A DNA stretch of 26,526 bases from a virus (IMGVR_UViG_3300012920_000219:1-26526); one strand, 5' to 3'. Shown: positions 6,822-26,350, numbered from the stretch's first letter. Notes: generated from the letters alone by a model not told the origin. Made by a program: numbers and translations.

Positions 6822-7595
6822 ATGGAAAAAATTAAAAAAGAAAAAGCAGTGAAGCCTGCTGTTGAAAAACGAAGCGCTTTACCAAAATTAAGAGATAAGG
6901 TGTATGAATTAAAATTAAATCAAACGCCTATCGTATACATATTAAAAAGTAGAGGGTTATTATGGTTTGATGAAACTGTAGGATATGAAAGAGAACTTAA
7001 ATATTGTGAAAATCAAAAAACAATATTTGTTGATGAAATGAAAGGGCCACAAAGACTTAACCATATTATATTTAGAGACGGACAATTATATGTTCCTAAA
7101 GAAAAACAAACTTTACAAAAATTCTTAGAATATCATCCAGATAATGGTGTTAAATTTGCAGAATTTAATCCTGTACAAATAGCAGAAAATGATATTGATT
7201 ATTTAGAATTAGAAATTGAAGCGTTAAATTTAGCGCAAAAAGTAGAAGTGGATCATGCGGAAGCAATTTTAAGGTCTGAAGTCGGCGATAAGGTATCTAA
7301 GATGACTTCTAAGGAGCTTAAAAGAGATATATTATTATTTGCTAGAAGCAATCCAAAACTATTCTTAGAATTAGTTAAAGATGAAAACATAAATATTAGA
7401 AATTTAGGTATAAAAGCTGTTGAAGCTGGTATTATTAAATTATCTAACGATCAAAGAACATTTATGTGGGGGTCAACTGACAGAAAATTAATTACTGTTC
7501 CTTTTGATGAAAACCCATATTCAGCTTTAGCTGCATACTTTAAAACTGATGAAGGTATTGAAGTATATCAAACTATCGAAAAGAAATTAAAGTAA
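6822..7595 (+). CDS. Uncharacterised protein downstream of the capsid gene
   Basis: I do not recognise this 257-aa protein. The first 25 residues are Lys-rich (KIKKEKAVKPAVEKRS) and look disordered. Residues 25-110 contain a compact beta-rich part, including PIVYILKSRGLLWFDE and HIIFRDGQLYVPKEKQ. Residues 110-257 are mostly helical and charged, with a segment MTSKELKRDILLFARSNP that resembles helical repeats. No signal peptide, transmembrane segment or catalytic motif is seen. It lies between the capsid gene and the first connector-size protein and is bracketed by two hairpins. A head decoration, head-completion or other virion-assembly role is possible but unproven. The start follows TTATATTATATC with no Shine-Dalgarno. 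Confidence 0.8.
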   Translation: MEKIKKEKAVKPAVEKRSALPKLRDKVYELKLNQTPIVYILKSRGLLWFDETVGYERELKYCENQKTIFVDEMKGPQRLNHIIFRDGQLYVPKEKQTLQKFLEYHPDNGVKFAEFNPVQIAENDIDYLELEIEALNLAQKVEVDHAEAILRSEVGDKVSKMTSKELKRDILLFARSNPKLFLELVKDENINIRNLGIKAVEAGIIKLSNDQRTFMWGSTDRKLITVPFDENPYSALAAYFKTDEGIEVYQTIEKKLK

Positions 7596-7602
7596 GCAAT
7601 TG

Positions 7603-7637
7603 TAGGTAACGGCCTGCAATCGCGGGCCTTTAACCTA
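7603..7637 (+). terminator. GC-rich hairpin between the 257-aa and 232-aa genes, possible terminator
   Basis: Seven pairs form between 7611-7617 (GGCCTGC) and 7622-7628 (GCGGGCC, one G-T pair), with an AATC loop. Outer arms TAGGT (7603-7607) and ACCTA (7633-7637) can add five pairs. The base of the inner stem is followed only by TTTAACC, so the T-run is short. The structure could be a weak terminator, a processing site, or a structure that limits ribosome access to the ATG at 7651. It is one of only two clear GC-rich palindromes between genes here. Confidence 0.55.
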
Positions 7638-7650
7638 TAATAAAAATATA

Positions 7651-8349
7651 ATGAGCGTAAACGTAAACACAGTATACCAAAGAGTATTAGCTATAGCAAA
7701 CAAAGAACAACGAGGTTATTTAACACCTCAGGAGTTTAATTATCTTGCAAATCAAGCGCAGCTAGATATATTCGAGCAGTATTTTTATGATTTAAATCAA
7801 TTTAGTAGAATACCAGGTAATGATACTGAATATGCTGATATGCTTAGTATTTTAGAAGAAAAAATAAGTTTATTTGAAAAAACAAATCAAACTGTAACAA
7901 ATGGCACAGCATTGCCATCTGATTTATATAGATTAGGTTCTGTAGTATTTAATGGTGCTGAAGCAGAATCTATAAATCAAAAAGATTATATCTATATAAC
8001 ACAATCTCCTTTAGCACAACCAACAAACGATTTTCCTATATATATTAGAGATAATGCAGGTATTAAAGTATATGGAAAAAACTCATCTGGTGCATTAGAA
8101 CAAAAAACTTCAGGAGTTACATGTAACTATATAAAACAACCTGCTAATGTAGAATGGGCATATAATACCGTTTTAGATGAAGCATTATATAATGCAAATA
8201 ATAGTGTTAATTTTGAGCTACACGAATCAGAAGAAACTGATTTAGTTATTAATATACTAGCATTAGCCGGTATTGTAATAAAAGATAATAATATTTATCA
8301 AATTGCAAGTTCAGAAGAAATAAAAGATACTCAACAAGAAAAAGCATAA
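7651..8349 (+). CDS. Connector/ring-like head-tail adaptor candidate
   Basis: This 232-aa protein has a helical N-terminus (NTVYQRVLAIANKEQRGYLT, then a segment like NYLANQAQLDIFEQYF), a beta-rich middle (residues 80-170) and a helical acidic C-terminus. The N-terminal helical pattern resembles head-tail adaptor or ring proteins of marine podoviruses and crAss-like phages, which stack under the portal. Size, position after the capsid gene and before the nozzle-like gene, and the near-contiguous pairing with the 293-aa gene (3 nt gap) all fit. There is no enzymatic motif. The exact ring position, or a head-completion role, cannot be decided from sequence alone. Confidence 0.62.
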   Translation: MSVNVNTVYQRVLAIANKEQRGYLTPQEFNYLANQAQLDIFEQYFYDLNQFSRIPGNDTEYADMLSILEEKISLFEKTNQTVTNGTALPSDLYRLGSVVFNGAEAESINQKDYIYITQSPLAQPTNDFPIYIRDNAGIKVYGKNSSGALEQKTSGVTCNYIKQPANVEWAYNTVLDEALYNANNSVNFELHESEETDLVINILALAGIVIKDNNIYQIASSEEIKDTQQEKA

Positions 8350-9237: not shown

Positions 9238-12200
9238 ATGCCTGAATTAAGACATCATTTTCGTTCAGGTAAAATGAATAAAGACCTGGACGAAAGATTA
9301 GTTCCTAATGGTGAATATAGAGACGCAAATAATATTGAAATTTCAACTTCAGAAAGTGATGATGTAGGCGCAATTCAAAATGTTATAGGTAATACAAAAA
9401 TTATTGGTAAAACATACGATGCAAACGCCCAAGCTATTACCGCTAATTGGAGCGGATTCGGCTTAACTAATGCAAAAGCTATAGGAAGTGTAGTTGATAA
9501 TGAAAATGATAAAATATATTGGTTTATAACATCTGACGAAGCTGATTGTATTGCTGAATATGATGATGTTAAAGGCATTATAGCACCTGTTTTAGTTGAC
9601 GCAAACAATATATTAAACTTTTCGTCTGACCAATATATATCAGGCATTAATATTTTACAAGGTTTATTATTATGGACAGATAATAAATCTGAGCCTAAGC
9701 AAATAGATATAGCTATATTTAAATCAGGGTGTTCAGGTGATTTTACAACACATACAAAATATACAGGTCAATTAATACCGAGTGCAGAATTATCGTCTGC
9801 GTCTAATTTTTTAGAAGAACATATAACAGTAGCTAGATTAGCGCCAATGAGTGCTCCTACACTAACAATGAGCTCTTCCACAAGAGGCGGTAATGGAACA
9901 GGTTCTAATGAAGTTATTATAACTAATGCTGTTTCTACCACATTTACAGATACAGAAGGTGTTGCAAAATCTCCTGGAACACAACTTACATTAAGTTTTT
10001 CCCCTTTGCCAAATTGGTTAGTAGGAGATACAATAACTTGTACAGCTACTTATGAAGAATTAGGGCAACAAGAAACATACACAATAACATTATTAATTAA
10101 TAGTATAAGCGCATCTAATGTATTTACGTGTACAATACAAAGTATACCATTAGAAATACCTCATGTAGCTTTAATTTGGGAAGCTTTATTAAGTGAAGAA
10201 GGTGTATTATTTGAAAAGAAATTTGTTAGATTTGGATATAGATGGAAATATTACAACGGGCAATATTCTACGTTTTCACCCTTTAGTGAATTAGCATTTT
10301 TACCAGATACTTTTGAATATTTATCAACAGATGGCCATAATGAGGGTATGATAAATAATCTTAGACAACTAACAGTAAATATAACAGAATCAAGACCAAT
10401 TGATGTAGAAGAGGTTGAAATACTTTATAAAGAGTCTAATAATCAAAATGTTTATGTAGTTGATTGTCTTAAATATGCTTCTGATGGTTCATTCCCAACA
10501 ACATATGCGTTAGAATCTGAAATAATTACAAAAGTAGTTGAATCAAATCAGATAATTAGACCTTGGGATAACGTTCCAAGAAAAGCTTTAGCACAGGAAG
10601 TTACTGCAAATAGGCTTATTTTTGGTAACTATTTACAAAATTATGATATATTAGACTTTAATTTACCAGATATTAGCATGTTTATATCCCAAGCTGCTAT
10701 TACAACTCTTAAAGAACCTGAATTATCTGTAAAATCATTAAGAACATACCAAGCAGGTGTTGCTTATATAGATAAATATAATAGACAATCACCTGTGTTT
10801 ACAAGCGCATCTGCATCAAAACAAACAAGTAAATCTTATGCACCAACTGTTAACAGTATAAGTGTAACCTTAAATAATCAACCACCAGATTGGGCAACAC
10901 ATTTTAAATATTTTATAAAAGAAACTTCTAATGAATATTATAATTTAGCATTAGATAGATATTATTTAGCTGAAGATGGTAATGTTTGGTTAAGTTTTCC
11001 TTCTTCTGAAAGAAATAAAATAACTGAAGAAAGTTATTTAATATTAAAGAAAAAACATGACTCTGATGAATTTGTAGCTACTAAATCAAGATATAAAATA
11101 TTAGATATACAAAATGAAGCACCTGATTTTCTTAAATTAAAAGAAAGAGCTATTGGTACAGCCGCAGTTGAAGCTAGAAGCTCGAATATACCTCAGGTAG
11201 GTAGTATATCTTTTGAATTTAGAGGGCCTGATCCAGCTAATAATGTTAGTTTTGGTAGTGGGTTTTCTTCAGATTCAGTTGTACAATTAGCGGTTGCTGG
11301 TGTTAAAACAGATAAATATAAAGTTGTAACTGGTGGACCAACAGGTAATAAAGATACAACTGGAAGTAATGATGAATTAGAATTTGTTTATAAAGTAACA
11401 TTAGAAGAACCATTAAAAAGCGGTGATAGCAGCGTTTTATCAAATATAAGCTCTGGTACTGAATTTGAAGTTATATTATTTGAGGAAAAATTTGAAAGAA
11501 AAGCAGAATTTTATGGTAGATTTTTTGCTAAAATAAACAGAGATGGTAATTTTGATACTAATATTATAGAGTCTTTTCCTGAAGAAAATGAACAATTTGG
11601 TATATCTGATGCTAGAACTATATTTGGCAATGCACAAAATACAGGTCCTGGAGACGGAACACAAGAGGCATCTTGGTTTGATACGCAAGCTAGAAGAAGA
11701 AAAGTAACTCAAGCCAATAATGGACATCCAAAACTAGGTTCCAATACAATGCGATTATTGTATACTGCTTCACCTAAGTCTGGATCAAGAAGCTTTGATA
11801 AAGCAAATACTATAAATAACTTCTTAAAAGCAATATCTACAACAGGTACTTTATTTAGGTTTAAAGGTAGCGGAACAGATGCTCTAGGCGAAATATATAA
11901 AGTAACAGCCGCTACTATAGAATACAAATATAGAAGAAATAGAAAAAGATTAGCATCAAGTAAAAGAAGAGAATATAATGTAACATTTGAACATTATAAA
12001 AATGCCACGCCTTATGAAGACCCATTTGTATATCCTTCTTCGGGTAGTGCATCTAATTTTATAGATGAAATACAAATAATTGAAAACGTAATACAAACAG
12101 ATGTAGAAGTTTTAACATCATCTAACCCTGCAATATGGGAAACAGAACCTAAAGAAGCTGTTGATTTAGATTTGTATTATGAAACAGGTATATCAAGACC

Positions 12201-15200
12201 GATTGCTCAACATGGTCAAACTCATGTATTAGACTTTAAAAATTGTTACTCATTTGGTAATGGTGTTGAATCTGATAGAATAAATGATGACTTTAATGCT
12301 CCTAGAATTGATAAAGGTGTTAAAATATCTACAGTATTAGACGAACCATATAAGCAAGAAATAAAGAAAACTGGTTTAATATTTTCAGGTATATTTAATT
12401 CGACTAGCGGTATTAATAGATTAAATCAATTTATACAAGGTGAACCTATAACTAAAGATTTAAATCCACATTACGGCAGTATACAAAAATTACATTCAAG
12501 AAATACTGATTTAATAACTTTTTGTGAAGATAAAGTATTAAAAATACTAGCTAATAAAGATGCTTTATTTGAAGCAGGAGGAAATGCACAATTAACAGCA
12601 ACAAATAGAGTTTTAGGACAATCAGTACCGTTTTTAGGAAATTATGGCATAAGTAAAAATCCTGAATCTTTTGCAGAACACGCGTTTAGAGTGTATTTTA
12701 CAGATAAAAACAGAGGTGCTGTATTAAGATTATCAATGGACGGTTTAACACCTATATCTGACGCTGGAATGAAAGATTATTTTCATGATAATTTGCCAGG
12801 AGCAAATAAGCTTATAGGTAGCTATGATACTAAAAAAGGATGTTACAATTTAACTTTACCAACAACAACTGTAAGTTTTGACGAACAGGTAAGAGGTTGG
12901 CCAAGTTTTAAATCTTTTATACCTGAAACTGCACAATCTTTAAATAACAAATATTTTACATATAATGCTGGTGAATTATGGATTCACAACAATGAAGTTA
13001 GAAATAATTTTTATGGTGTACAATATGAGTCTGACGTTACTGTATTATTAAATGATGCAGCTGATTCAATAAAAGGTTATAAAACATTAAATTATACTGG
13101 TTCTGCATCAAGAAAATATACTAATAATTATGATGCAGGCAATAATTATAGTAATCCTACATCAACAAATACAAAAGGTTGGTATTGTGATTTTATAAAA
13201 ACAAATGAGCAAAGTGGTTTTGTTAAAGAATTTATAAAGAAAGAAGGTAAATACTTTAATCAAATAAAAGGCGATGCTACTACAATTGATAATTTAGATA
13301 GTAAAGAATTAAGTGTACAAGGTATTGGACAATTAACAGCAATATCAGGCGATACAGCATTAGATGATAGAACAGTTACAGTATCATTAACAGGTATTGC
13401 AAATACAACGAATCCAGGAGCTACATTTGATGTTACAATAGGCACAGAAATACATAGTACAAATTCAAGTATTACAATATTAATAACACCAAATACGGGA
13501 AGCACATTAACAGCAAGCGATCTTAGCGTAGGCACTACAGGAACATATGTTGATAGTGTTAGTTTTGCACAAGATGGTGCTAATGTTATTGCGACAGTAA
13601 ACTTTACAGACGGTGTTAACATGCCTAGCAGTGATTTAGCAATTAACTTAGCTGTAACGGGTGATGGTGTTTTAAATAATTATTTACTAAATGATTTAGT
13701 TATAAAAAGTCAAACTAATTCAAATATAACTACAACTATTAGCTATTCCGGCTCTGGTAACGCTACAGCAGAAGCTACAAATTCTGCTACAGGTTTACCT
13801 AGCACATATACAACTACCGCAACGGTTGCAACAGTTACACTAGATTTAGATACTGGATATAATTTTAAAGAACAACCAGATTTTAAAATAACTAAACAAG
13901 ATGATGATCCAGAAAGTGAATATATAATTACTTTCCAGGATAAAGATACAAGTAACGCTAATATAACTATAGGTTCGGGTGGTAAAACACTTGCAGATGT
14001 AGATAAGAGGGTTTATACAATACAGTATAAATATCCTGCGGCAAATACTGATGATAATGAAATTATATTTAGCAGTGCTTCTGTTTTAGAAAATGATGCA
14101 GACACTAATAAAATTACAGGATATAGAGTTGTTAACGGTAATGTTGTTCCTAGGTTTGCAACTAATAAAGAAGTTAGAGTTTTTGGTGCCGTAGGTGCAG
14201 ATTTTAGATTTAAAAACTTTACAACATCAACAGGTAGCACTTCGGGCTCAAGCACAACATTAACACTTACAGCTGTCAATAATGACATTCATGTGGGTAT
14301 GTTAGTTACAGGAACAGGTATAAGTGGCACAGTAACTGTAGTTAGTGTTAGCGGAACATCAGTTACACTTTCAAGCGCACAAACTATTAGTAGTACAACA
14401 ATAACATTTACAGAGTGGTGGAACGGCACAACGTTTGTTGGTTCTGAAACAGATTTAGAAATACCAAGTGCTGGTTATTATTCAATTTTAGTTCCATTCC
14501 TTGAAACTACTGTTACAAGAAGATATTATATACAAATTGAAGCTATTAGCCCAACAACACTATTAAGTCCTTTACAAGGTAATATATATGACTCTTCTAA
14601 CGCTGTTTTAAATCCATTCTATATAAATCAATATGCTGATGTTACAGTAAGCTTAAATGCGTCTCAAACAGCTGATTTCACTATTACATCAAGTGCTGCA
14701 ACTAAGTCATATACTGCAAGTGCATATCCTGTTGAAGGATCTGACTTTTCAAAAATTGCTTTAAGCTTAACAGCTACAGCAACAAATAATATAACTAAAA
14801 CTAGAGACCCTGAGATTGAAGATTTTACAGGATTTGTATCAACACCAGCTGATGAAGATCATTCTATATTTACAAATGATTTTGAATTAGATTTTGATTT
14901 ACCTGTTGTTACTATAAATAACTCAGCATCACCAAAAACAGTTACAATAACTGGTGATATGTTTATTAATAAATATGGTAGCGGTGATTTAACAAGCACG
15001 TTGCCTTTAAATGATTTTCTTACTGTTTCTGGCGGCTCTGGTGGTGGTGGTTCTAGACAATTATCAGTTACAGTAACGGGTGATGCAAGCGGTATAATAG
15101 TAGGTGATCACAGATTTAGTTATAATGATGGTAATGGAAATAGTGGTACACTTGTAAAAGCTATAGATGTTGGTACTTTATCACTTACTAGTTTAACAAG

Positions 15201-15447
15201 CGGTTCTGGTGTTATGTATGGTAATTTCCATGGTAATTCATTATCACAAATAACTTTAAATATATCATCAACATCTAGCTCAGCAATTAGTCAAACACAA
15301 GAATTAACAATTACAAAAACAAGTTTAGTTGGTGTAGCTCCATCACAGGATTTACACTATAATTGGACTGCAAAAACAGACGAAGTAATATCATCAACAT
15401 CAGATGTATCATTTACAATAGATGTAGATTTAGCTTACGTCCCTTAA
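9238..15447 (+). CDS. Giant tail nozzle/stabilisation-like protein with adhesin-like C-terminus
   Basis: At 2069 aa this is one of two giant virion proteins here. Its N-terminus (HHFRSGKMNKDLDERLVPNG, then EYRDANNIEI) resembles the opening of tail tubular B/stabilisation-type proteins in marine podoviruses and crAss-like phages. Repeated beta segments follow (NDKIYWFITSDEADCIAEY and LQGLLLWTDN near 85-150; FVRFGYRWKYYNGQYSTFSP near 330-350), suggesting a propeller-like nozzle. A well-conserved-looking block lies at 1092-1190 (LITFCEDKVLKILANKDALF; NKDRGAVL-like DKNRGAVLRLSMDGLTPISD). From about 1360 to the end the chain is Thr/Ser/Gly-rich with Ig-like beta repeats. A segment at 1662-1725 (VGMLVTGTGISGTVTVVSV) is of the kind found in phage fibres and adhesins. 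No separate tail-fibre gene is seen nearby, so the C-terminus may supply receptor binding. It is much longer than T7 gp12 (about 800 aa). Confidence 0.72.
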   Translation: MPELRHHFRSGKMNKDLDERLVPNGEYRDANNIEISTSESDDVGAIQNVIGNTKIIGKTYDANAQAITANWSGFGLTNAKAIGSVVDNENDKIYWFITSDEADCIAEYDDVKGIIAPVLVDANNILNFSSDQYISGINILQGLLLWTDNKSEPKQIDIAIFKSGCSGDFTTHTKYTGQLIPSAELSSASNFLEEHITVARLAPMSAPTLTMSSSTRGGNGTGSNEVIITNAVSTTFTDTEGVAKSPGTQLTLSFSPLPNWLVGDTITCTATYEELGQQETYTITLLINSISASNVFTCTIQSIPLEIPHVALIWEALLSEEGVLFEKKFVRFGYRWKYYNGQYSTFSPFSELAFLPDTFEYLSTDGHNEGMINNLRQLTVNITESRPIDVEEVEILYKESNNQNVYVVDCLKYASDGSFPTTYALESEIITKVVESNQIIRPWDNVPRKALAQEVTANRLIFGNYLQNYDILDFNLPDISMFISQAAITTLKEPELSVKSLRTYQAGVAYIDKYNRQSPVFTSASASKQTSKSYAPTVNSISVTLNNQPPDWATHFKYFIKETSNEYYNLALDRYYLAEDGNVWLSFPSSERNKITEESYLILKKKHDSDEFVATKSRYKILDIQNEAPDFLKLKERAIGTAAVEARSSNIPQVGSISFEFRGPDPANNVSFGSGFSSDSVVQLAVAGVKTDKYKVVTGGPTGNKDTTGSNDELEFVYKVTLEEPLKSGDSSVLSNISSGTEFEVILFEEKFERKAEFYGRFFAKINRDGNFDTNIIESFPEENEQFGISDARTIFGNAQNTGPGDGTQEASWFDTQARRRKVTQANNGHPKLGSNTMRLLYTASPKSGSRSFDKANTINNFLKAISTTGTLFRFKGSGTDALGEIYKVTAATIEYKYRRNRKRLASSKRREYNVTFEHYKNATPYEDPFVYPSSGSASNFIDEIQIIENVIQTDVEVLTSSNPAIWETEPKEAVDLDLYYETGISRPIAQHGQTHVLDFKNCYSFGNGVESDRINDDFNAPRIDKGVKISTVLDEPYKQEIKKTGLIFSGIFNSTSGINRLNQFIQGEPITKDLNPHYGSIQKLHSRNTDLITFCEDKVLKILANKDALFEAGGNAQLTATNRVLGQSVPFLGNYGISKNPESFAEHAFRVYFTDKNRGAVLRLSMDGLTPISDAGMKDYFHDNLPGANKLIGSYDTKKGCYNLTLPTTTVSFDEQVRGWPSFKSFIPETAQSLNNKYFTYNAGELWIHNNEVRNNFYGVQYESDVTVLLNDAADSIKGYKTLNYTGSASRKYTNNYDAGNNYSNPTSTNTKGWYCDFIKTNEQSGFVKEFIKKEGKYFNQIKGDATTIDNLDSKELSVQGIGQLTAISGDTALDDRTVTVSLTGIANTTNPGATFDVTIGTEIHSTNSSITILITPNTGSTLTASDLSVGTTGTYVDSVSFAQDGANVIATVNFTDGVNMPSSDLAINLAVTGDGVLNNYLLNDLVIKSQTNSNITTTISYSGSGNATAEATNSATGLPSTYTTTATVATVTLDLDTGYNFKEQPDFKITKQDDDPESEYIITFQDKDTSNANITIGSGGKTLADVDKRVYTIQYKYPAANTDDNEIIFSSASVLENDADTNKITGYRVVNGNVVPRFATNKEVRVFGAVGADFRFKNFTTSTGSTSGSSTTLTLTAVNNDIHVGMLVTGTGISGTVTVVSVSGTSVTLSSAQTISSTTITFTEWWNGTTFVGSETDLEIPSAGYYSILVPFLETTVTRRYYIQIEAISPTTLLSPLQGNIYDSSNAVLNPFYINQYADVTVSLNASQTADFTITSSAATKSYTASAYPVEGSDFSKIALSLTATATNNITKTRDPEIEDFTGFVSTPADEDHSIFTNDFELDFDLPVVTINNSASPKTVTITGDMFINKYGSGDLTSTLPLNDFLTVSGGSGGGGSRQLSVTVTGDASGIIVGDHRFSYNDGNGNSGTLVKAIDVGTLSLTSLTSGSGVMYGNFHGNSLSQITLNISSTSSSAISQTQELTITKTSLVGVAPSQDLHYNWTAKTDEVISSTSDVSFTIDVDLAYVP

Positions 15448-15804: not shown

Positions 15805-16500
15805 ATGGATCCAACAGGAATGATAGCGTCAGCCGGCGTACAAGCAGCAGGACAGGCATTAGGCGGGATAGTAAAATTCGGTGCTAGCTTGTTTGGTGGA
15901 GGTAAACGAAGACGTGAACAAAGAGAGGCCGCAAAACAATTAGCAGCTGAAAGAAGTAAATTTGAGCAATTAGATACAGGCAATGTATATGAAAATATAG
16001 AAAATACATTTGAAGATTTAACTGTAAATACACAAGCAGCGGATTTTGCAGCTCAGCAAAGTCAAGCGGCTAATGCTAATATTATGTCTGGTTTAGCCGG
16101 AGCAGCGGGTGGATCCGGTATTGCTGCTTTAGCACAATCTATGGCTAACTCACAAGCACAACAAGCACAACAAGCGTCAGCAAGTATTGCACAACAAGAA
16201 CAATCAAATGCTAGATTAGCTGCACAAGGTGAAAGTCAAAGGCAAATGGCAATAGCAGGTGGTGAAGCACAATCACAAAAAATGGCTTACGAAAAACAAA
16301 GTACATTACTTGGTATGGCGCAGCAAAGAAAAGCAGCAGCAGATCAAGCTAGACAAGATGCTACCAACCAGTTAGTTGGAGGATTAACAGATATGGCAGG
16401 AGGTGCAGCAGGAGCTATGATGGCTAACAAAGGTTTAAAAAACACAGTTACTGGCGTAGATAGCGCAGGAGATCCAACTTACCACAAAGGATTATTTTAA
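15805..16500 (+). CDS. Candidate internal virion (ejection) protein, gp14-like
   Basis: This 231-aa protein is Ala, Gln and Gly-rich. The first 33 residues are hydrophobic and small (MIASAGVQAAGQALGG, FGASLFGGG) and are followed by a basic cluster KRRREQR at about 34-40, a pattern suited to membrane insertion. Residues 90-210 form a long Ala/Gln helical region (QAQQAQQASASIAQQEQ), and the C-terminus is Gly/Ala-rich. In size and composition it resembles T7 gp14-type ejected proteins that enter the cell envelope during DNA delivery. It is the first and smallest of three consecutive genes (231, 498, 2115 aa) whose size progression parallels T7 gp14-gp15-gp16. This is inference by composition and order. 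Confidence 0.6.
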   Translation: MDPTGMIASAGVQAAGQALGGIVKFGASLFGGGKRRREQREAAKQLAAERSKFEQLDTGNVYENIENTFEDLTVNTQAADFAAQQSQAANANIMSGLAGAAGGSGIAALAQSMANSQAQQAQQASASIAQQEQSNARLAAQGESQRQMAIAGGEAQSQKMAYEKQSTLLGMAQQRKAAADQARQDATNQLVGGLTDMAGGAAGAMMANKGLKNTVTGVDSAGDPTYHKGLF

Positions 16501-16513
16501 TAAATAAAAAATT

Positions 16514-18010
16514 ATGGCAGATAAAAATTTAATATTAGGAGCAAGATTAGCAGCAGGCGGGTTTAATACTGGCCTAGCAGACGTGGTAGATAAAAGTATT
16601 GCAAGAGCTACTAAAAATATTACTGGTATATTTGAAGCACAAGCTGAATATGCGGCTGAGATTGATAGAAGAGCTTTTGATATTATTAATCAGTTTCCGC
16701 CAGATATAAATTTTTCTAAATTAGATCCTCAGCATGTAGAAGCACTACAAGCATGGTCTACAGCTAAGAAAGAAGACTATTTTAAAAAAGCACAACAACT
16801 TGCTAAAACAAGAGTAAATAGTCCTGAATTTTTAACTTTACAAACAGAGTTAAATCAGATAAAACAAGCTTATGTAAATGCAAATGATAATTTAATAAAT
16901 TTACAAGCTAAAAGAACAACATATACACAAGATAGAGGAGATGAATTAATTTCATCAGGTATGCACAAAGAGGATATAAATTTAGAAGCATTAGATAAAT
17001 TATTATTACCAGACGGTTTAGAATATAAAGTAGCATATGATGACTTTGGTAATCCTACATATACTGTTGGGGATAAAAAAATTACCATGAAAGATTTAGA
17101 CTGGTATTCTATAGATAATAAATTTGCACAATTTGCAGGCGAGCAATCTGTAAAAGTGCAAAATGCTGGTATAAAAGGATTAGAATTAAAACCTGGGACA
17201 GCAATGTATGATCAATTAATGCTTAGTCTTGATTCACAATTAAGAGGACAGGAAAGATTTAAATCTATTTTAAATGATAAAATGTTTAATGATGTTGGAT
17301 TAGATTTTACACCAGACCAAATTGCTAAGTTTTCAAAAGATCCGGCTGGTGCAAAAGAAGCTATTAAGCAAAAAATGATGTCTCATTATATGAATATTAA
17401 TGGAGCCGCTTATAAGTCTTATATAAATACACTTAATGCTCAAAATAATAATAACAATTCATATTCTGCTGGTGATCAATTTGATTTAGATGCTGCTGCG
17501 GGAACTGTAAAAGATGCAATAACATTTATAAATAGTAGGCCAGACGTAAACGCAATAAAAAGAGTAATAGGACAAACAGACTTAGAAGGAAGTGCTAAAT
17601 ATGCTACTGGTGCGGAAATTATAAAAAGATTTGGAGAAGATAAAGCTGCGGGGGTAGGTGTTACTAAAGAAGATAATAACAAATTGTATTATGCCGCTGT
17701 TGATGGACAAGGTGGAACACAATACAGGGTTGTGCCTTTAGATCAAAATGATCAAGGTGCGTTGTTTGATTTTTACATGAACGCATATAACATTTCACCT
17801 GAAGTATCGGCTATATATAAAAGCCGACTAAATCTCGGTACTTTTACACCTGTAAATAATAATACAAATCCTTTAGCTAATCCAATTAATCTTAGCGATG
17901 GTGATTTACAAAAGATTAATGATTATATAAATGAAATGGGGATTAGTCTTAATAATGTAAATAGAACAGGCACACCTAAATCAGACGAAGAATTAATTAC
18001 AGAATTTTAA
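16514..18010 (+). CDS. Candidate internal virion (ejection) protein, gp15-like
   Basis: This 498-aa, largely helical protein has no enzyme motif. Its N-terminus (LILGARLAAGGFNTGLAD) is small-residue-rich, and residues 30-140 are long charged helices (IFEAQAEYAAEIDRRAFDII; AWSTAKKEDYFKKAQQLAK). An Asn-rich linker (NNNNNS) occurs near residue 315. The C-terminus is acidic (SDEELITEF). Its stop codon directly abuts the ATG of the 2115-aa gene (TTTTAAATGG), a layout that favours coupled, roughly stoichiometric synthesis. Placement between the gp14-like and giant proteins suggests the middle member of an ejectosome. T7 gp15 is about 750 aa, so this one is shorter. Confidence 0.55.
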   Translation: MADKNLILGARLAAGGFNTGLADVVDKSIARATKNITGIFEAQAEYAAEIDRRAFDIINQFPPDINFSKLDPQHVEALQAWSTAKKEDYFKKAQQLAKTRVNSPEFLTLQTELNQIKQAYVNANDNLINLQAKRTTYTQDRGDELISSGMHKEDINLEALDKLLLPDGLEYKVAYDDFGNPTYTVGDKKITMKDLDWYSIDNKFAQFAGEQSVKVQNAGIKGLELKPGTAMYDQLMLSLDSQLRGQERFKSILNDKMFNDVGLDFTPDQIAKFSKDPAGAKEAIKQKMMSHYMNINGAAYKSYINTLNAQNNNNNSYSAGDQFDLDAAAGTVKDAITFINSRPDVNAIKRVIGQTDLEGSAKYATGAEIIKRFGEDKAAGVGVTKEDNNKLYYAAVDGQGGTQYRVVPLDQNDQGALFDFYMNAYNISPEVSAIYKSRLNLGTFTPVNNNTNPLANPINLSDGDLQKINDYINEMGISLNNVNRTGTPKSDEELITEF

Positions 18011-21000
18011 ATGGAAGAATTATTAAGACAGTTGTATGGTAAATACGCTGCTGATTTGAGTCCAGAAGAAGTAAATAAAAAAATTAAAGTTGCTTTAACT
18101 GTAGAACCAAATAGAGCTGTAGATTTATTTTATAAAAAATATACCGGAGCTGGTCCTACAGAACAGCAAAGAAGTGCTGTTGTACAATTCTTACAAAAAA
18201 GAACTTCCAAAGAAGCGCCACAAGACCCAAGTATGTGGCAATCCTTAACTAATGGGGTTAAGCAAATATATAAAAGTATGGCTGCAGAAGGACCTATGAT
18301 GAATGCAGCTGAAAGACTTACCGAAACAAATAAACAAATTAATCTTATACATAACAGTCCTGATGATCAAACATTTTTTGTAGGAGGCTATGCTGTTCCT
18401 AGAGGACCTTATTATAAAGGTGAAGAAGTTGATAAGCAAGGTGCTCTTGATTATTATAAAAAGAAAAAAGCTGAAGATGAAATGATTTGGCTTGAAAATT
18501 TTTCACAAGCAGAAGAAATACAATCTGAAATAGATAAATATACTAAAGCAAGAATATTTGATGAGCAAGGTAATTTTGATTTACAAGGAAGAGAAGTACC
18601 GCAAATAGTAATGGAACAATTACCTCAAATGTTAGGTAGTTTTATTGGTGGTACATATTTTCAAGAAGCTGGAGGGGTAATGGAAAGATTAATGACTAAA
18701 CAAGCAGCTGAAGATTTAAATATTAGTGAACAAGATTTTATGCAATTATCTCAACAAGAAAGAGGTGCTGCATTTTTAGATATAATAAATGACGGTAGAG
18801 CAGAAGATATATTAGACGATGCTCACCGTACTGGGTTAATTAATCAAGGTTTTGATGTTCTTAGTGCCGGTTTTATGGCAACAAGAGCTGTTAAATTTAT
18901 ACCTAAAGACGCTATGAGAAGAGCGTTAAAAGGTAATTTTAAAGAATTAAGTAAAGCATTAAAATATCAAGGTACATCTACAGGTGTTGAAATATTAACA
19001 GAAAATGCACAAGAAATAAATTCTGCACTAACAGCTGGTGACCCTATAACAGCAATGTTGTTAGCGGAAACTACAGCACAAACTATTATTGGTGCAGGTG
19101 GTACACAACTTAGTATAGGTGGAGCAAGTTTTACATACAATGAAGGTATGGCTCAATACTCTGCTATGACAGATCCTACAAGTGTTGCAGCAATTGCAAA
19201 ACAAATGCGAACACAAATAAAAAATGACAGAAGAAGAACAGAAGAAAATAAATTAGATTTACTGAGACAAATAGATATTGCTGAAAGTTTAACTAAAGAT
19301 AGTAAATTTAATAATTTAGATCCTGAAGCTAGGAAAGAGTTTTTTAAAAATGAATATGCAAGACAAAAACAATTTGATAAAATTGAAGCATTAGAAAAAA
19401 GATTAGAAAAAAGACCAAATAACTTAGAATTAGAATATCAAATAAATGAAGCTAAATTAGCTTTGGGAGACATAGAAGACAATATGTCTAGTGTATTATA
19501 TTTTAATAACTATAAAGCAAACGGAATGAAGTTTGCTGAATTTATAAACTCTAAAAAGAAAGGATTTTTTGCAGATAAAAATGTTATTATAAGAGAGAAT
19601 AAAAAAGAATTAGAAAGTTATTTAAAGAAATACGATCCTGATGCACTTAACGACCCAAGTGTACAAAATGTATTAAATGGTAAATCAAATGGTGCTTTAA
19701 ATAAAAATGGTAAAACAGCTTATATAATAAATGAAAATATAAGAAATAACAGTATTAAAAAAGGCGGGGCGATGGGTAGAGACGCTGGTAATGTTGTACA
19801 CCATGAAGTTATTCACATGTTATTTCACAGTATGCCCGATAATATCCGTGCTAAAATAAGAAATGAAATTGATTTAGCTTTAAAAGAAAACAAAGATCCA
19901 GATATACAAAAAGTATACGAAAAATTACAAGAAAGATTAAAAGCTTATGAAGGTAAGTCTGATTCAGTTTTATCTCATGAATTTTTTGCAGGTCTTTCAG
20001 ATGTTCTTAGCCCAATACAAGCAGCAAAAAATATTGAACAAGTTGGTTTATTTAGAAAAATAGGTCAAATATTTAACAGTAATCTTAATGTATTAAATTT
20101 ACCTACAATTATTGATAGTCAGAATGCACTAGAAATAATGCAAAAATATAATTCATTTAATGGAATAGAAACAACAATAAGGCAAGATGTTGAAAAAGCG
20201 GCTGGCGATGTAGCCTCAACAGTTGCTGGTAGAGGTGTTGATGTAGATGATAAAGTTTCTTTAGAATCTGTAAATACTACAGATATGGCTACGTCTTTAG
20301 ATCAATATATAACTGAAGATATAAATTCAAAAGAAGCATTCCAAGCAAGCGATGCAGCTAAAGCAGGTGTATATACAGAAATAGAAATAAACAATGTGTT
20401 AGATGGTTATATTTCTAATATGATTGTTGAAGACCAAAACTTAGGTGGTCTACCTTCAGATATACAAGAAGATGTAAAAAGAAAAGTTAAAGAAAGAATT
20501 ACAGATAGAGTTCTTAAAAACTTTGACCCTAATAAAGAAGGCAACAAAAGAAGTTTATTTAGTTATATATATGGAGATGCTAAAGGTAAAGGAAGAAATG
20601 GTATTGCATATAAAGCGTTATTAGATATAAAACAACAATATGCTAAAGACACTAAAACAACCTCAATAACAACTGACGAAGGTTCAACTATAGATATAGC
20701 TGATGATACTACAATAAGTATAGAAGATCAAATAGATAATAAAATATTAAGTGAAAACATAGATAATACAACTAATCCTAAAATTGAAGATGAAATAGAT
20801 GTATTTTCTGAACAAGATATAAAAGATATAGAAGACTTTGTATCTCAAATATTTGGAGATGAAGTTATATTAGATCCTAAAGATTCTAATTTTAGAAACA
20901 AAATAAAAGAGATATACGAAAAAGCTGTAATGCCTAAAGTAAGAAGTTTAGCAGGTAATTTTGAAAACTTTTTTGATAACTATATAAATAAACTTTTTGA

Positions 21001-24000
21001 TCCAAATAAAAAATTATTACCTATACAATATTTATATCAAGCTGAAAGAAGTTTAAAAGATAAAAACTTTGCTAAGTTTAATAAAAGGTTAACAACACAA
21101 GAACAGATTAGGAAAGCAAGAGATGAAAAAAATGCTTTTGTTGAAAATGAAGCACAAGGTGTTGATTTATACGATAGGTTAAAACCATCATTAGAAACTT
21201 TAAAAGAATATTTTAGTTATGGTGAAAAGAAACCTAATTCTACTGTAAGAGCTAGAAGAAATAAACTTTATGCTGCAATAGGTACTGAAGTTTTGTTTAA
21301 CAAAACACCTAATCAACTTAAGCAAGCTAACTTAACAGATGAAGAAAAAGCAGTAGCTGCTAGAAAAATTGAAAGAAGTTTAGAAAGTAAAGAGTTAGCA
21401 ATATCTGTAGGCTTAGGAGATATATATTATAAATTAGAGCCTGGCAATATGGATGTAGCTAGAAAATTTGCTAAGCAATGGGTTAAAATATTACCATACT
21501 TTGATAAATATCCAGGTTTATTAAATTTAGGTACATTTACAAATGGCTTACTTAAAGATGGTGATATAGATAGTCAGCAAAAAGCTGAAATTGAAAAAAT
21601 ATTATTAGCAGGTTCAAATAAGTGGGTTGGTAATAAAACAAAAACTTATGGCAAGTCTGCAAAAAAAGGAGAAGAAAACTATTATAAAGGTGGTCCTTTT
21701 ACAAAAGCTACATTAAATAATGAGTCTGTTGAAAAATTACAAGCTAGAAGCGATAGATATGCTAACGCTGGTATACATTTTTGGACAGCGGTAAATGAAG
21801 CTGTTAATGATCCTAATAATGGTGATTTAAACTTTATAGCTATATCGCATTATTTAGATAATGCAAGAAGTGAAAAATCGCATGTTCACAGACGAGCAGC
21901 GAGACTTTTTGGTTATGATGTTGTTACTCTTGCTAATAATGAACAAATGGTATTTGAGCATGCAATGCAAAGTACAAGAGCAAAAAATGAACTAATGAAA
22001 GGTGCTAAAAAACCTGTTAAGCCATTTCATGATTTCTTAGAAGAAGTATTTGATAATTATTATGTAATAGGTATGTCTAAAAAAGATGCCGATAATGTTG
22101 ATGGTGCTACATTTATAGATTTCAAAGGTGAAGTTAGATCATATAAATTTAATATGGGTCGTAACTGGTTTGTTGATACAGGCAAATGGATTCAAAGATA
22201 TGCTAATCCAGATGTTGCGGCAAATGGTGGTGTTAATTTAAAAAGATTAAAAACTTTAAAAGGTGTTACCTTTGAAAAAGAATTTAATATAAAAAATGAC
22301 GGAACAACATTAGATGTAGCGTTAGAAAGTAAAGATCAAAACTTAAGCCAAGATTTAAACGATATTATAGAACAAAAGAAAGGTGCTAAGTTTGCATCTC
22401 AAAAAAGATATTCAGATAAAAAAGCTAAAAGAAGAGCTAAAAAAGCAGGGCCAAAAGGTATATTTAAATTCTTTATACCACCTAGTGCGGAAGACTTTCA
22501 AGGATTAATGTATTCATTATTGCCTAAAGGCGAGTTAGGTAATGTAGCTCATGAGTGGTTTAGACAAAATTTATTCAGACCATATGGTTTAGCTATAGAA
22601 AATATTACTAGAGAAAGAATGGCTTTAATGAATGATTTTAGAGAGCTAAAAAATAAATTAAATAAAGTTCCTAAAAAATTAAAAGAAGAAGTTCTTGATG
22701 GTGATTATACAAAACAAGATGCTGTAAGAGTTTGGATTTGGGATAAACAAGGTATGACTATACCTGGTTTGTCAGAAACAGATCAAAAAAAATTAGTAGC
22801 AATTGTTGAAAAAGATAAAGGTTTAAAAACTTTTGGTAATGAATTAATAAACATAAACAAGGGTGATGGTTATGTTAAACCTGATAATAATTGGGATGTT
22901 GGTACTATTACTACAGATTTATATCAAAATATAAACACTACTAAAAGAGCAAAGCATTTAGAAAAATGGAAAGAAAATGTTGATGAAATATTTAATAATG
23001 AAAATTTAAATAAACTAGAAGCTGCTTATGGTACTGAATATAGAGTTGCACTAGAAAATATATTAAGCAGAATGGAATCTGGTAGAAATAGACCAGGTGG
23101 TGGTAACGCACAAATTAATGCATGGTTAGAATGGGTTAATAATTCCGTTGGTGTTATCATGTTCTTAAACGTTAGATCAGCTATGTTACAGATGATTTCA
23201 ACTATCAATTACATGAACTGGTCTGATAATAATCCATTACAAGCGGCAGCAGCTTATGCTAATCCTAAACAATTTTGGTCAGACTTTTTATTTATATATA
23301 ATTCTGATTTCTTATCAGAAAGAAGAGGTGGATTAAAATTAAATGTAAATGAATCTGAAATTGCTGAGATGGCAAATAGAGGTGGTGTAAGAGGTGTTAT
23401 AAATTTTATACTTAACAAAGGATTTGTATTAACAAGAGCTGCAGATAGTTTTGCTATTGCAAATGGTGGTGCAGCTTTTTATAGAAATAGAACTAATTCT
23501 TATATTAAACAAGGAATGTCGCGACAAGAAGCTGAAACAAAAGCATTCCAAGATTTTAGAGAATTAACAGAAGAATCACAGCAATCATCAAGACCAGATA
23601 GAATATCTATGCAGCAAGCAAGTGGTTTAGGTCGTATTGTATTGGCTTTTGCAAACACACCAATGCAGTACACAAGATTAATGAAAAGATCTATACAAGA
23701 TATTGCGGCTGGAAGAGGTGATTGGAAAACTAATTGGTCTAAGCTAATGTATTATAGCACAATACAAAACTTTATATTTAACGCTATGCAACAAGCTTTA
23801 TTTGCAATTGGTTTTGGCGAAGAAGAAAAAGAAGAGGTTGATAAGAAAGTTACTAAAGTAGCTAATGGTATGGTTGATTCAATACTGAGAGGATCAGGTA
23901 TCGCCGGTAATGTAATTATGATGGCTAAAAACGTATCACAAGAAATTGTAAATCAAGCTGGTAAACCTAGACCTGATTATAATAAAGCTATAGACAAGGT

Positions 24001-24358
24001 ATTTGATATATCTCCACCTATAGACGCTAAACTTTCAAAACTTAGAAGTTCAGCATATGTATTTAATAATCAAATGGATGAAGTATTAGATGAAGGGTTA
24101 AGTGTAGACAATCCAGGTATTATGGCTACTGCTCAAATTGTTTCAGCAACTACTAACGTACCTTTAGATAGAGTCGTTAGATTATTTGATAATTATAGAG
24201 CAGCAGTAGCGTCAGATGCAGAAGCTTGGCAAAGAGTAGCATTAATATTAGGTTGGGGTACATGGGAACTAGGTATAGAAGATAAAAATAAAAGGTATCA
24301 ACCAAAGCTTAGTGGTCAAAGTCTTGGTGGACAATTAAAACAAGGAACATTAAAATAA
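18011..24358 (+). CDS. Giant internal virion protein with HExxH zincin domain
   Basis: This 2115-aa protein is the largest in the window and a candidate gp16-like ejected protein or multidomain virion polyprotein. Residues 1-100 are helical. Around 290-400 there are amphipathic/hydrophobic stretches (LSAGFMATRAVKFIP; MLLAETTAQTIIGAGG). A zincin metallopeptidase motif HHEVIH gives HExxH at H598-E599-H602, with E657 in SHEFFAGLSD as a possible third zinc ligand about 55 residues on. Long charged linkers follow. A Lys/Arg-rich patch lies at 1470-1483, a hydrophobic segment near 1708-1735 (SVGVIMFLNVRSAMLQMIS), and a conserved-looking C-terminal module with FANTPMQY at 1880-1887 and FNAMQQALFAIGF near 1920-1935. 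No lytic transglycosylase or RNA polymerase motif was found. The peptidase could trim virion proteins or act in the host envelope; both are conjecture. Confidence 0.68.
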   Translation: MEELLRQLYGKYAADLSPEEVNKKIKVALTVEPNRAVDLFYKKYTGAGPTEQQRSAVVQFLQKRTSKEAPQDPSMWQSLTNGVKQIYKSMAAEGPMMNAAERLTETNKQINLIHNSPDDQTFFVGGYAVPRGPYYKGEEVDKQGALDYYKKKKAEDEMIWLENFSQAEEIQSEIDKYTKARIFDEQGNFDLQGREVPQIVMEQLPQMLGSFIGGTYFQEAGGVMERLMTKQAAEDLNISEQDFMQLSQQERGAAFLDIINDGRAEDILDDAHRTGLINQGFDVLSAGFMATRAVKFIPKDAMRRALKGNFKELSKALKYQGTSTGVEILTENAQEINSALTAGDPITAMLLAETTAQTIIGAGGTQLSIGGASFTYNEGMAQYSAMTDPTSVAAIAKQMRTQIKNDRRRTEENKLDLLRQIDIAESLTKDSKFNNLDPEARKEFFKNEYARQKQFDKIEALEKRLEKRPNNLELEYQINEAKLALGDIEDNMSSVLYFNNYKANGMKFAEFINSKKKGFFADKNVIIRENKKELESYLKKYDPDALNDPSVQNVLNGKSNGALNKNGKTAYIINENIRNNSIKKGGAMGRDAGNVVHHEVIHMLFHSMPDNIRAKIRNEIDLALKENKDPDIQKVYEKLQERLKAYEGKSDSVLSHEFFAGLSDVLSPIQAAKNIEQVGLFRKIGQIFNSNLNVLNLPTIIDSQNALEIMQKYNSFNGIETTIRQDVEKAAGDVASTVAGRGVDVDDKVSLESVNTTDMATSLDQYITEDINSKEAFQASDAAKAGVYTEIEINNVLDGYISNMIVEDQNLGGLPSDIQEDVKRKVKERITDRVLKNFDPNKEGNKRSLFSYIYGDAKGKGRNGIAYKALLDIKQQYAKDTKTTSITTDEGSTIDIADDTTISIEDQIDNKILSENIDNTTNPKIEDEIDVFSEQDIKDIEDFVSQIFGDEVILDPKDSNFRNKIKEIYEKAVMPKVRSLAGNFENFFDNYINKLFDPNKKLLPIQYLYQAERSLKDKNFAKFNKRLTTQEQIRKARDEKNAFVENEAQGVDLYDRLKPSLETLKEYFSYGEKKPNSTVRARRNKLYAAIGTEVLFNKTPNQLKQANLTDEEKAVAARKIERSLESKELAISVGLGDIYYKLEPGNMDVARKFAKQWVKILPYFDKYPGLLNLGTFTNGLLKDGDIDSQQKAEIEKILLAGSNKWVGNKTKTYGKSAKKGEENYYKGGPFTKATLNNESVEKLQARSDRYANAGIHFWTAVNEAVNDPNNGDLNFIAISHYLDNARSEKSHVHRRAARLFGYDVVTLANNEQMVFEHAMQSTRAKNELMKGAKKPVKPFHDFLEEVFDNYYVIGMSKKDADNVDGATFIDFKGEVRSYKFNMGRNWFVDTGKWIQRYANPDVAANGGVNLKRLKTLKGVTFEKEFNIKNDGTTLDVALESKDQNLSQDLNDIIEQKKGAKFASQKRYSDKKAKRRAKKAGPKGIFKFFIPPSAEDFQGLMYSLLPKGELGNVAHEWFRQNLFRPYGLAIENITRERMALMNDFRELKNKLNKVPKKLKEEVLDGDYTKQDAVRVWIWDKQGMTIPGLSETDQKKLVAIVEKDKGLKTFGNELININKGDGYVKPDNNWDVGTITTDLYQNINTTKRAKHLEKWKENVDEIFNNENLNKLEAAYGTEYRVALENILSRMESGRNRPGGGNAQINAWLEWVNNSVGVIMFLNVRSAMLQMISTINYMNWSDNNPLQAAAAYANPKQFWSDFLFIYNSDFLSERRGGLKLNVNESEIAEMANRGGVRGVINFILNKGFVLTRAADSFAIANGGAAFYRNRTNSYIKQGMSRQEAETKAFQDFRELTEESQQSSRPDRISMQQASGLGRIVLAFANTPMQYTRLMKRSIQDIAAGRGDWKTNWSKLMYYSTIQNFIFNAMQQALFAIGFGEEEKEEVDKKVTKVANGMVDSILRGSGIAGNVIMMAKNVSQEIVNQAGKPRPDYNKAIDKVFDISPPIDAKLSKLRSSAYVFNNQMDEVLDEGLSVDNPGIMATAQIVSATTNVPLDRVVRLFDNYRAAVASDAEAWQRVALILGWGTWELGIEDKNKRYQPKLSGQSLGGQLKQGTLK

Positions 24359-25885: not shown

Positions 25886-26350
25886 ATGAAAAACATAAGC
25901 GAACATATCTCATATAAGGAGGGAGTGTATAGCATTACTGCTTTGAGGCTAGGTTTAAATAACGACCCTACAAAGGCTCATTTAACGAATATGGAGTTAC
26001 TTGCGGAAAAAATATTTGAGCCCCTTAGAAAGCACGTAAACGGCCCTATAAAGATCAATTCATTCTATCGCGGACCTGAATTAAATAAAGCGATCGGCGG
26101 AAGTGCCAATTCGCAACATTGTAAAGGCCAAGCGATGGATATTGATGATGTATATGGCTATATGAGTAATGCAGATATGTATGAATATATAAAAAATAAT
26201 TTATCGTTCGACCAGATGATATGGGAATTCGGTAATTCTGATAACCCGGATTGGGTACATGTGAGTTATGTAAATGAAGAAGCTAATAGAAATAGATGTT
26301 TGTTAGCTTATAAAGATGAGAATAACAAAACAGCTTATAAAATAATATAA
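25886..26350 (+). CDS. M15-type peptidoglycan peptidase (endolysin candidate)
   Basis: This 154-aa protein cuts, by family analogy, peptide cross-links or stem peptides of murein. The zinc-site pattern of peptidase M15 is present: SQHCKGQAMDID with H78 and D85, and WVHVS with H125. The upstream signature SFYRGPELNKAIGG (about 59-72) is typical of the M15_3/hedgehog-like group. No signal peptide is seen, so export would depend on a membrane-disrupting partner such as one of the two nearby membrane proteins. The length matches single-domain phage endolysins. The start follows AAATTAA, and the TAA stop overlaps the next ATG by one base. The 5' half is somewhat more GC-rich than its neighbours. 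Confidence 0.92.
   Translation: MKNISEHISYKEGVYSITALRLGLNNDPTKAHLTNMELLAEKIFEPLRKHVNGPIKINSFYRGPELNKAIGGSANSQHCKGQAMDIDDVYGYMSNADMYEYIKNNLSFDQMIWEFGNSDNPDWVHVSYVNEEANRNRCLLAYKDENNKTAYKII

What the first reader, a model, noticed from the sequence alone, without database searches (positions are those of the whole stretch)
18011..24358. Zincin metallopeptidase buried in a giant candidate ejection protein
HHEVIH (HExxH at 598-602) with E657 as a possible third ligand sits inside a 2115-aa protein whose position matches T7 gp16, which instead carries a transglycosylase. A virion-borne peptidase could process neighbouring virion proteins during maturation or digest envelope or host defence proteins on entry. 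I saw no lysozyme or polymerase motif to explain the size. The motif and its distance to the Glu are seen directly; the role is inferred.
Basis: partly seen in the sequence, partly recalled or inferred. Interest (0 to 1): 0.72.

Follow-up and report, generated by a model that had tools for sequence, protein, structure and literature searches.

The report
Swappable metallopeptidase in phage injected protein
A marine bacterial virus carries, inside a giant protein that is probably injected into the host with its DNA, a zinc-protease domain whose four catalytic residues stay fixed across 47 divergent relatives while the surrounding sequence is swapped wholesale, so it is a real enzyme of a known general kind in an unusually exchangeable setting.

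Summary
ORF 18011-24358 encodes 2115 aa with HEVIH at 598-602 and E657. The window is the virion module of a crAss-related podovirus of the Flavobacterium/Cellulophaga phage type, and the giant is the last gene after two small ejection-type genes. Its C-terminal third finds 333 relatives in IMG/VR. Of 66 full-length relatives 55 have HExxH (0.3 expected by composition). In 47 dereplicated domains with a median of 17% identity, H598, E599, H602 and E657 are the only columns above 79%; the HExxH was selected for, E657 was not. AlphaFold2 puts the two motifs on adjacent confident helices (pLDDT about 95). The profile resembles the metallopeptidase of the N4 virion RNA polymerase beyond the motif. 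So this is a gluzincin of the polyvalent-protein type (Iyer 2017), a known kind. New here: relatives with 92-96% identical C-termini carry zincin halves only 22-30% identical, so the module is exchanged on a fixed carrier; it was lost or degraded at least five times; and it precedes a sigma-70-region-2-like block. Ten relatives also encode a stand-alone sigma factor, and two near-complete ones show no RNA polymerase-like giant. Substrate and activity are untested; self-processing after ejection is the leading guess.

The parts
18011..24358 (+). giant candidate ejection/cargo protein, 2115 aa
   Evidence: last gene of the virion operon as in MW202828, Elemovirus, Panino and phi38:1; 333 relatives of its C-terminus
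19580..20101 (+). gluzincin metallopeptidase domain, aa about 524-697
   Evidence: AlphaFold2 on 47 sequences, pLDDT about 95 over the active-site helices; alignment A1
19802..19816 (+). HEVIH (aa 598-602), zinc ligands H598 and H602, general base E599
   Evidence: present in 55 of 66 relatives
19979..19981 (+). E657, third zinc ligand
   Evidence: only other invariant column in 47 sequences; on the helix aa 651-666 of the model
20408..20797 (+). sigma-70 region-2-like block, aa about 800-929
   Evidence: profile A4: most PDB matches are sigma factors, best E 0.0089; hhalign to cellular sigma factors score 35 versus 18 or less in controls; Pfam Sigma70_r2 in 4 of 44 members, best 5.9e-4, none in the window's own copy
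22358..24295 (+). conserved all-helical C-terminal carrier domain, aa about 1450-2095
   Evidence: conservation profile, alignment A3, model
16514..18010 (+). 498-aa middle ejection-type protein
   Evidence: position equals phi38:1 gp100 'structural protein'
15805..16500 (+). 231-aa small ejection-type protein
   Evidence: position equals phi38:1 gp099 'virion structural protein'
9238..15447 (+). muzzle-like tail protein, 2069 aa
   Evidence: PHROG 14478 E 5e-133; Pfam crAss_MUZ_C E 2.3e-5, just below the cut-off

Best explanation
The giant protein is a virion cargo/ejection protein of a marine Bacteroidota-type podovirus that works like a 'polyvalent' protein: a conserved helical C-terminal carrier with an exchangeable N-terminal half. 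That half holds a catalytically intact gluzincin metallopeptidase (H598, H602 and E657 bind zinc, E599 activates water). Most likely, after the protein has been threaded into the host and refolds, the peptidase cuts the giant polypeptide itself, and possibly nearby ejected proteins, separating the N-terminal modules and the sigma-like block from the C-terminal carrier that stays with the ejection channel. Shown here: the domain, its conserved catalytic set, its place in the operon, and module swapping. Inferred: presence in the virion, activity, substrate and timing.
For: HExxH in 55 of 66 relatives against 0.3 expected. H598, E599, H602 and E657 are the only columns above 79% in 47 domains with median pairwise identity 17%. 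AlphaFold2: three short strands, then the HEVIH helix and the E657 helix, pLDDT about 95 there. The second-look aligner puts lethal-factor-type gluzincins first (4dv8 catalytic domain: Z 5.7, rmsd 5.1, 166 aligned) and PPEP-2 at 4.9. Profile match to the N4 vRNAP metallopeptidase: score 39.7, E 7.8e-5; 60 shuffles that keep HExxH reach at most 29.8. PHROG 87 'metallo-protease' matches 4 of 47 members, best 1.2e-4. The Elemovirus giant has the domain at aa 1447-1674, 29.5 bits. Giants of elemoF, phi38:1 gp101 ('structural protein') and Panino match the N-terminal profile at 33-38 bits. Self-processing by such domains was proposed by Iyer et al. 2017 (PMC5512222), with phage P1 DdrB cited as processed before packaging.
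Against: No cleavage product, virion proteomics or assay was available. N4 vRNAP, the nearest studied case, is packaged uncut (PMC5512222), and the purified protein showed no evidence of degradation (PMC12633501). At least three lineages lack the domain and two have the first histidine changed to glutamate, so processing cannot be obligatory. No Pfam zincin model matches the window's own domain. Foldseek itself gave no significant structural match, and the lethal-factor Z scores lie close to an unrelated row (CloA, 5.9).
Confidence: 0.45

Rival explanations
1. The peptidase is a host-directed effector: once injected it cleaves one or more host proteins (defence, stress or regulatory proteins), and module swapping reflects an arms race with different hosts.
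For: The zincin half is swapped while the carrier is kept: L069/L072 have 96% identical C-termini but 26% identical zincin domains, L057/L058 92% and 23%. DNA similarity of L069/L072 starts just after the zincin domain. The domain is dispensable (five or more losses or degradations). Other cassettes such as a polynucleotide-kinase/zeta-toxin-like AAA domain occur in single relatives.
Against: No target is known. A self-cutting module that carries its own cleavage site could be swapped just as freely. Swapping also covers neighbouring linker regions, so it is not specific to the peptidase.
Confidence: 0.3
2. Maturation protease: it cuts the giant or its neighbours during virion assembly, before DNA packaging.
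For: Late-gene position; phage P1 DdrB is thought to be processed before packaging (PMC5512222).
Against: Relatives without the domain keep the C-terminal carrier, so assembly does not need it. N4 vRNAP is packaged intact (PMC5512222).
Confidence: 0.13
3. The domain mainly serves packaging or structure and its proteolytic activity is vestigial, as the corresponding region of N4 vRNAP is needed for encapsidation.
For: The region with the N4 metallopeptidase is required for encapsidation (PMC5512222). Three relatives have lost the first metal ligand, and two of them (L055, L079) still match the zincin profile at 23 and 39 bits.
Against: The four catalytic residues are the only invariant ones in 47 sequences of about 17% identity, the pattern of selection on catalysis rather than on shape.
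Confidence: 0.12

Closest known systems
Zincin-like MPTase domains of phage-type polyvalent proteins (Iyer, Burroughs, Aravind 2017)
   Same: HExxH helix followed by a helix with the third-ligand Glu, three-stranded sheet, embedded in a giant multidomain phage protein beside virion genes
   Different: No curated Pfam model matches the window's domain; the phage group is marine Bacteroidota phages; it is followed by a sigma-like block, and the paper's main text contains no mention of sigma; wholesale swapping on a conserved carrier is documented here
Phage N4 virion RNA polymerase gp50, C1 domain with HExxH
   Same: Giant last protein after two smaller ejection proteins; profile-profile similarity of the zincin domains beyond the motif
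   Different: No RNA polymerase domain detected in the window protein; no relation of the C-terminal domains was found, but this was not tested directly
T7 gp14/gp15/gp16 ejection proteins
   Same: Order small, medium, giant; the highest-ranked second-look match of the C-terminal model is a T7 gp15-gp16 core chain (6yt5_A, Z 4.6, within noise)
   Different: No transglycosylase domain; sequence similarity not detected
Crassvirales cargo proteins and vRNAP (phi-crAss001 gp45-gp50)
   Same: Similar tail architecture with a muzzle-like protein and a cargo position after it (PMC10172136)
   Different: No RNA polymerase DxDGD-type motif in any of the giants

Membership tests
Polyvalent-protein zincin MPTase | HExxH plus a downstream Glu on the next helix | tested here: met
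   invariant in 47 sequences; helices 595-606 and 651-666 in the model
Polyvalent-protein zincin MPTase | small three-stranded sheet and helix before the HExxH helix | tested here: met
   AF2 strands at aa 524-528, 561-563, 569-573; confident region, no solved structure
Polyvalent-protein zincin MPTase | detectable relation to a characterised member (N4 vRNAP C1) | tested here: met
   hhalign score 39.7, probability 61%, E 7.8e-5, above 60 of 60 shuffles that keep HExxH
Polyvalent-protein zincin MPTase | match to a curated family model | tested here: inconclusive
   no Pfam zincin model for the window's domain; M78 in 2 of 47 members at best E 0.08; PHROG 87 metallo-protease in 4 of 47, best 1.2e-4
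Polyvalent-protein zincin MPTase | zinc binding and peptidase activity | not testable with these tools
   needs protein
T7 gp16 ejection protein | N-terminal lytic transglycosylase | tested here: not met
   no SLT or lysozyme match in the window protein
T7 gp16 ejection protein | fold of the C-terminal core | tested here: inconclusive
   6yt5_A Z 4.6, 73 aligned, within the noise band
N4-type or crAss-type virion RNA polymerase | RNA polymerase catalytic domain | tested here: not met
   no Pfam RNAP match; no D[FYILVAM]DGD motif in 66 giants; no other RNAP-like giant ORF in two near-complete relatives
Sigma-70 region 2 (block aa 800-929) | profile relation to sigma factors | tested here: inconclusive
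   most PDB profile hits are sigma factors but the best E is 0.0089; hhalign E 6.4e-5, probability 64%; only 2.4% against the phages' own sigma

The most novel reading that the evidence does not exclude
The giant is an injected early-transcription device: a sigma-region-2-like domain is delivered with the DNA and freed by the adjacent metallopeptidase, steering the host RNA polymerase before the phage's own sigma factor is made, in place of the virion RNA polymerase that N4-like and crAss-like phages inject.
Probability: 0.13. Interest if true: 0.88.

Novelty: new variant of a known kind. Interest (0 to 1): 0.57.

Why it matters
Giant injected proteins of abundant marine phages are almost unannotated: none of 50,697 phage records gave a tblastn match to this one. 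The data show they can be read as a fixed carrier plus exchangeable enzyme modules, with the peptidase present in most of them. If the peptidase frees the modules after entry, this would help answer how very large ejected proteins act at several places in the cell, and E599A becomes a clean single-residue test. If it cuts host proteins instead, the swapping set of more than 40 divergent domains is a library of phage proteases against bacterial targets.

Tried and rejected
tblastn of the whole giant against phages and a viral scan with patterns chosen over its whole length found nothing; only the conserved C-terminus worked. Pfam and PHROGs on the window protein: no informative hit. Foldseek of the zincin model against PDB and BFVD: no hit at E 0.001 or better. 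Foldseek of the C-terminal model: none, and PDB sequence search with that profile: none. The genome-contig scan gave only three binned fragments under unrelated organism names, so no host could be inferred. An RNA polymerase identity of the giant was considered and rejected. A first hhalign against a single sigma sequence was uninformative and was replaced by a 14-sequence alignment. Literature searches for zincin together with crAss-like phages and for sigma factors in ejection proteins gave no relevant prior report in the open library.

Full report
Observation. The ORF at 18011-24358 (+) has 2115 codons. HEVIH is at residues 598-602 and residue 657 is Glu. The protein has 15 histidines, and 0.008 HExxH motifs would be expected by composition.

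Setting. The window is the virion module of a tailed phage: large terminase (cut at the left end of the record), portal, capsid and two ring-type proteins by PHROGs, a 2069-aa muzzle-like protein (PHROG E 5e-133; crAss muzzle C-terminal domain E 2.3e-5, slightly under its cut-off), then proteins of 105, 231, 498 and 2115 aa. The portal is 26-53% identical to those of a Manatee Spring phage, Maribacter phage Panino, Flavobacterium Elemovirus phages, Cellulophaga phi38:1 and Pachyviridae. In MW202828, Panino, elemoF and phi38:1 the virion operon likewise ends with a giant protein of 3859, 1829, 3694 and 1691 aa. In phi38:1 the three genes at its end are annotated as structural. A profile of the window family's first 460 residues matches the giants of elemoF, phi38:1 and Panino at 33-38 bits. 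The two small plus one giant layout resembles T7 gp14-15-16 and N4 gp52-51-50 (the N4 order is; its ejection roles; T7 from general knowledge).

Relatives and conservation. The whole protein found nothing, but its residues 1710-1936 found 333 relatives in IMG/VR, of which 80 loci were kept. From these I took 66 proteins of 1700 aa or more including the window's own, 56 after removal of near copies. Residues 1450-2095 are strongly conserved; residues 1-1450 hardly at all. Inside the variable part the HExxH stands out: 55 of 66 have exactly one, against 0.32 expected for the set. In 47 dereplicated windows, median pairwise identity 17%, the four columns H598, E599, H602 and E657 are fully invariant and no other column exceeds 79%. 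The first three are fixed because windows were chosen by the motif; E657 was not chosen, though MAFFT was free to place gaps. The H-to-E distance is 51-71 residues in 46 of 47.

Fold. AlphaFold2 on that alignment gives mean pLDDT 77.7, with most ten-residue blocks between residues 523 and 662 at about 90-98; strands at 524-528, 561-563 and 569-573, the HEVIH helix at 595-606 and the E657 helix at 651-666. Coordinates are not released by the tool, so ligand distances were not measured. Foldseek found no significant match. The second-look aligner ranks lethal-factor gluzincin domains at the top (Z 5.2-6.7) with PPEP-2 at 4.9; an unrelated HD-type row reaches 5.9, so this is supporting, not decisive. 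The same superfamily link was reported for polyvalent MPTases by Iyer et al. 2017 (PMC5512222). PHROG 87 'metallo-protease' matches 4 of 47 members (best 1.2e-4); Pfam M78 matches 2 at best 0.08.

Relation to N4. I aligned 14 diverse N4-type C1 domains; the N4 C1 domain is described as having a conserved HExxH (PMC12633501). The comparison with A1 gives score 39.7, probability 61%, E 7.8e-5. Controls: A3 20.7, A4 12.4; 60 column shuffles of A1 that keep HExxH reach at most 29.8; masking the motif drops the score to 22.6 with the alignment in the same register. So the resemblance goes beyond the motif but leans on it.

Losses and swapping. Of the 56 dereplicated proteins, six have no HExxH; L055, L079 and L070 have Glu in place of the first His. 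On a tree of the C-terminal domain these states need at least five changes. Proteins with nearly identical C-termini often have unrelated zincin halves: L069/L072 96% against 26%, L058/L057 92% against 23%, L058/L065 92% against 29%, L081/L061 92% against 30%. At the DNA level L069/L072 are 87% identical from just behind the zincin domain to the end, with little similarity before it. L081/L061 are similar upstream (to 3635), then not, then similar over the sigma-like block (7347-8197), not, and again from 9183. Other close pairs such as L051/L053 keep the domain (71% identity). This is mosaic exchange of modules on a fixed carrier. Chimeric assembly is unlikely to explain so many independent contigs but was not tested.

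Sigma-like block. Behind the zincin, usually 135-265 residues on, lies a block found in nearly all giants, including most of those without the zincin. Its profile matches mainly sigma factors in the PDB (best E 0.0089), Pfam Sigma70_r2 matches 4 of 44 members (best 5.9e-4; not the window's copy), and hhalign against 14 cellular sigma ORFs scores 35.1 (E 6.4e-5) against 11.6-18.0 for unrelated or reversed profiles and about 9 for shuffles. It does not match the phages' own sigma convincingly (2.4%). I hold this at about 60-65% likely. Ten of ten relatives examined encode a separate protein of about 250 aa that is a clear sigma factor (99.8%, E 6.6e-30 against cellular sigma factors). Two near-complete relatives (59 and 68 kb) show no other RNAP-like giant ORF (the last 1.3 kb of the 59-kb record were not read).

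Mechanism. Shown: the gluzincin signature under strong purifying selection on its catalytic residues, embedded in an exchangeable half of a giant whose position is that of ejection proteins. Inferred: that the giant is in the virion, that the domain cuts, and what it cuts. I favour cutting of the giant itself after ejection (0.45), because a single self-contained cutter fits a multi-module injected chain, tolerates swapping, and is the proposal already made for this domain class. Host-protein cleavage (0.30) fits the swapping equally well. Maturation and structural roles are less likely because several lineages do without the domain and because catalytic residues alone are conserved.

Novelty. 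The domain class and its presence in phage giants are known. The family, its mosaic exchange on a conserved carrier, and the neighbouring sigma-like block were not found in the literature searched, which covers open-licence papers only.

Noticed in passing
20408-20797 (giant aa 800-929): Sigma-70 region-2-like block directly behind the zincin, present in nearly all relatives, also in most of those without the zincin
   Followed up: partly
L126-L135: Ten of ten relatives encode a separate, clear sigma factor of about 250 aa, suggesting these phages redirect host RNA polymerase; none is in this fragmentary window
   Followed up: partly
L069/L072, L057/L058, L065/L058, L081/L061: Near-identical C-terminal carriers joined to unrelated N-terminal halves, with sharp DNA similarity breaks at the module borders
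   Followed up: yes
L055, L079, L070: Zincin-derived domains in which the first histidine of HExxH is Glu (EELFH, EELSH), possibly inactive
   Followed up: partly
single members of the 18 relatives in alignment A2: Other cassettes in the giant: polynucleotide-kinase/zeta-toxin-like AAA domain (Pfam AAA_33 E 4e-17), DUF6861, DUF6934
   Followed up: no
L002:25334-36913: Manatee Spring phage giant (3859 aa) carries two HExxH motifs, weakly matching the zincin profile
   Followed up: no
25886-26350: 154-aa protein that looks like an M15-type D-Ala-D-Ala peptidase endolysin (by eye and by a similar annotation in MW202828); ordinary
   Followed up: no
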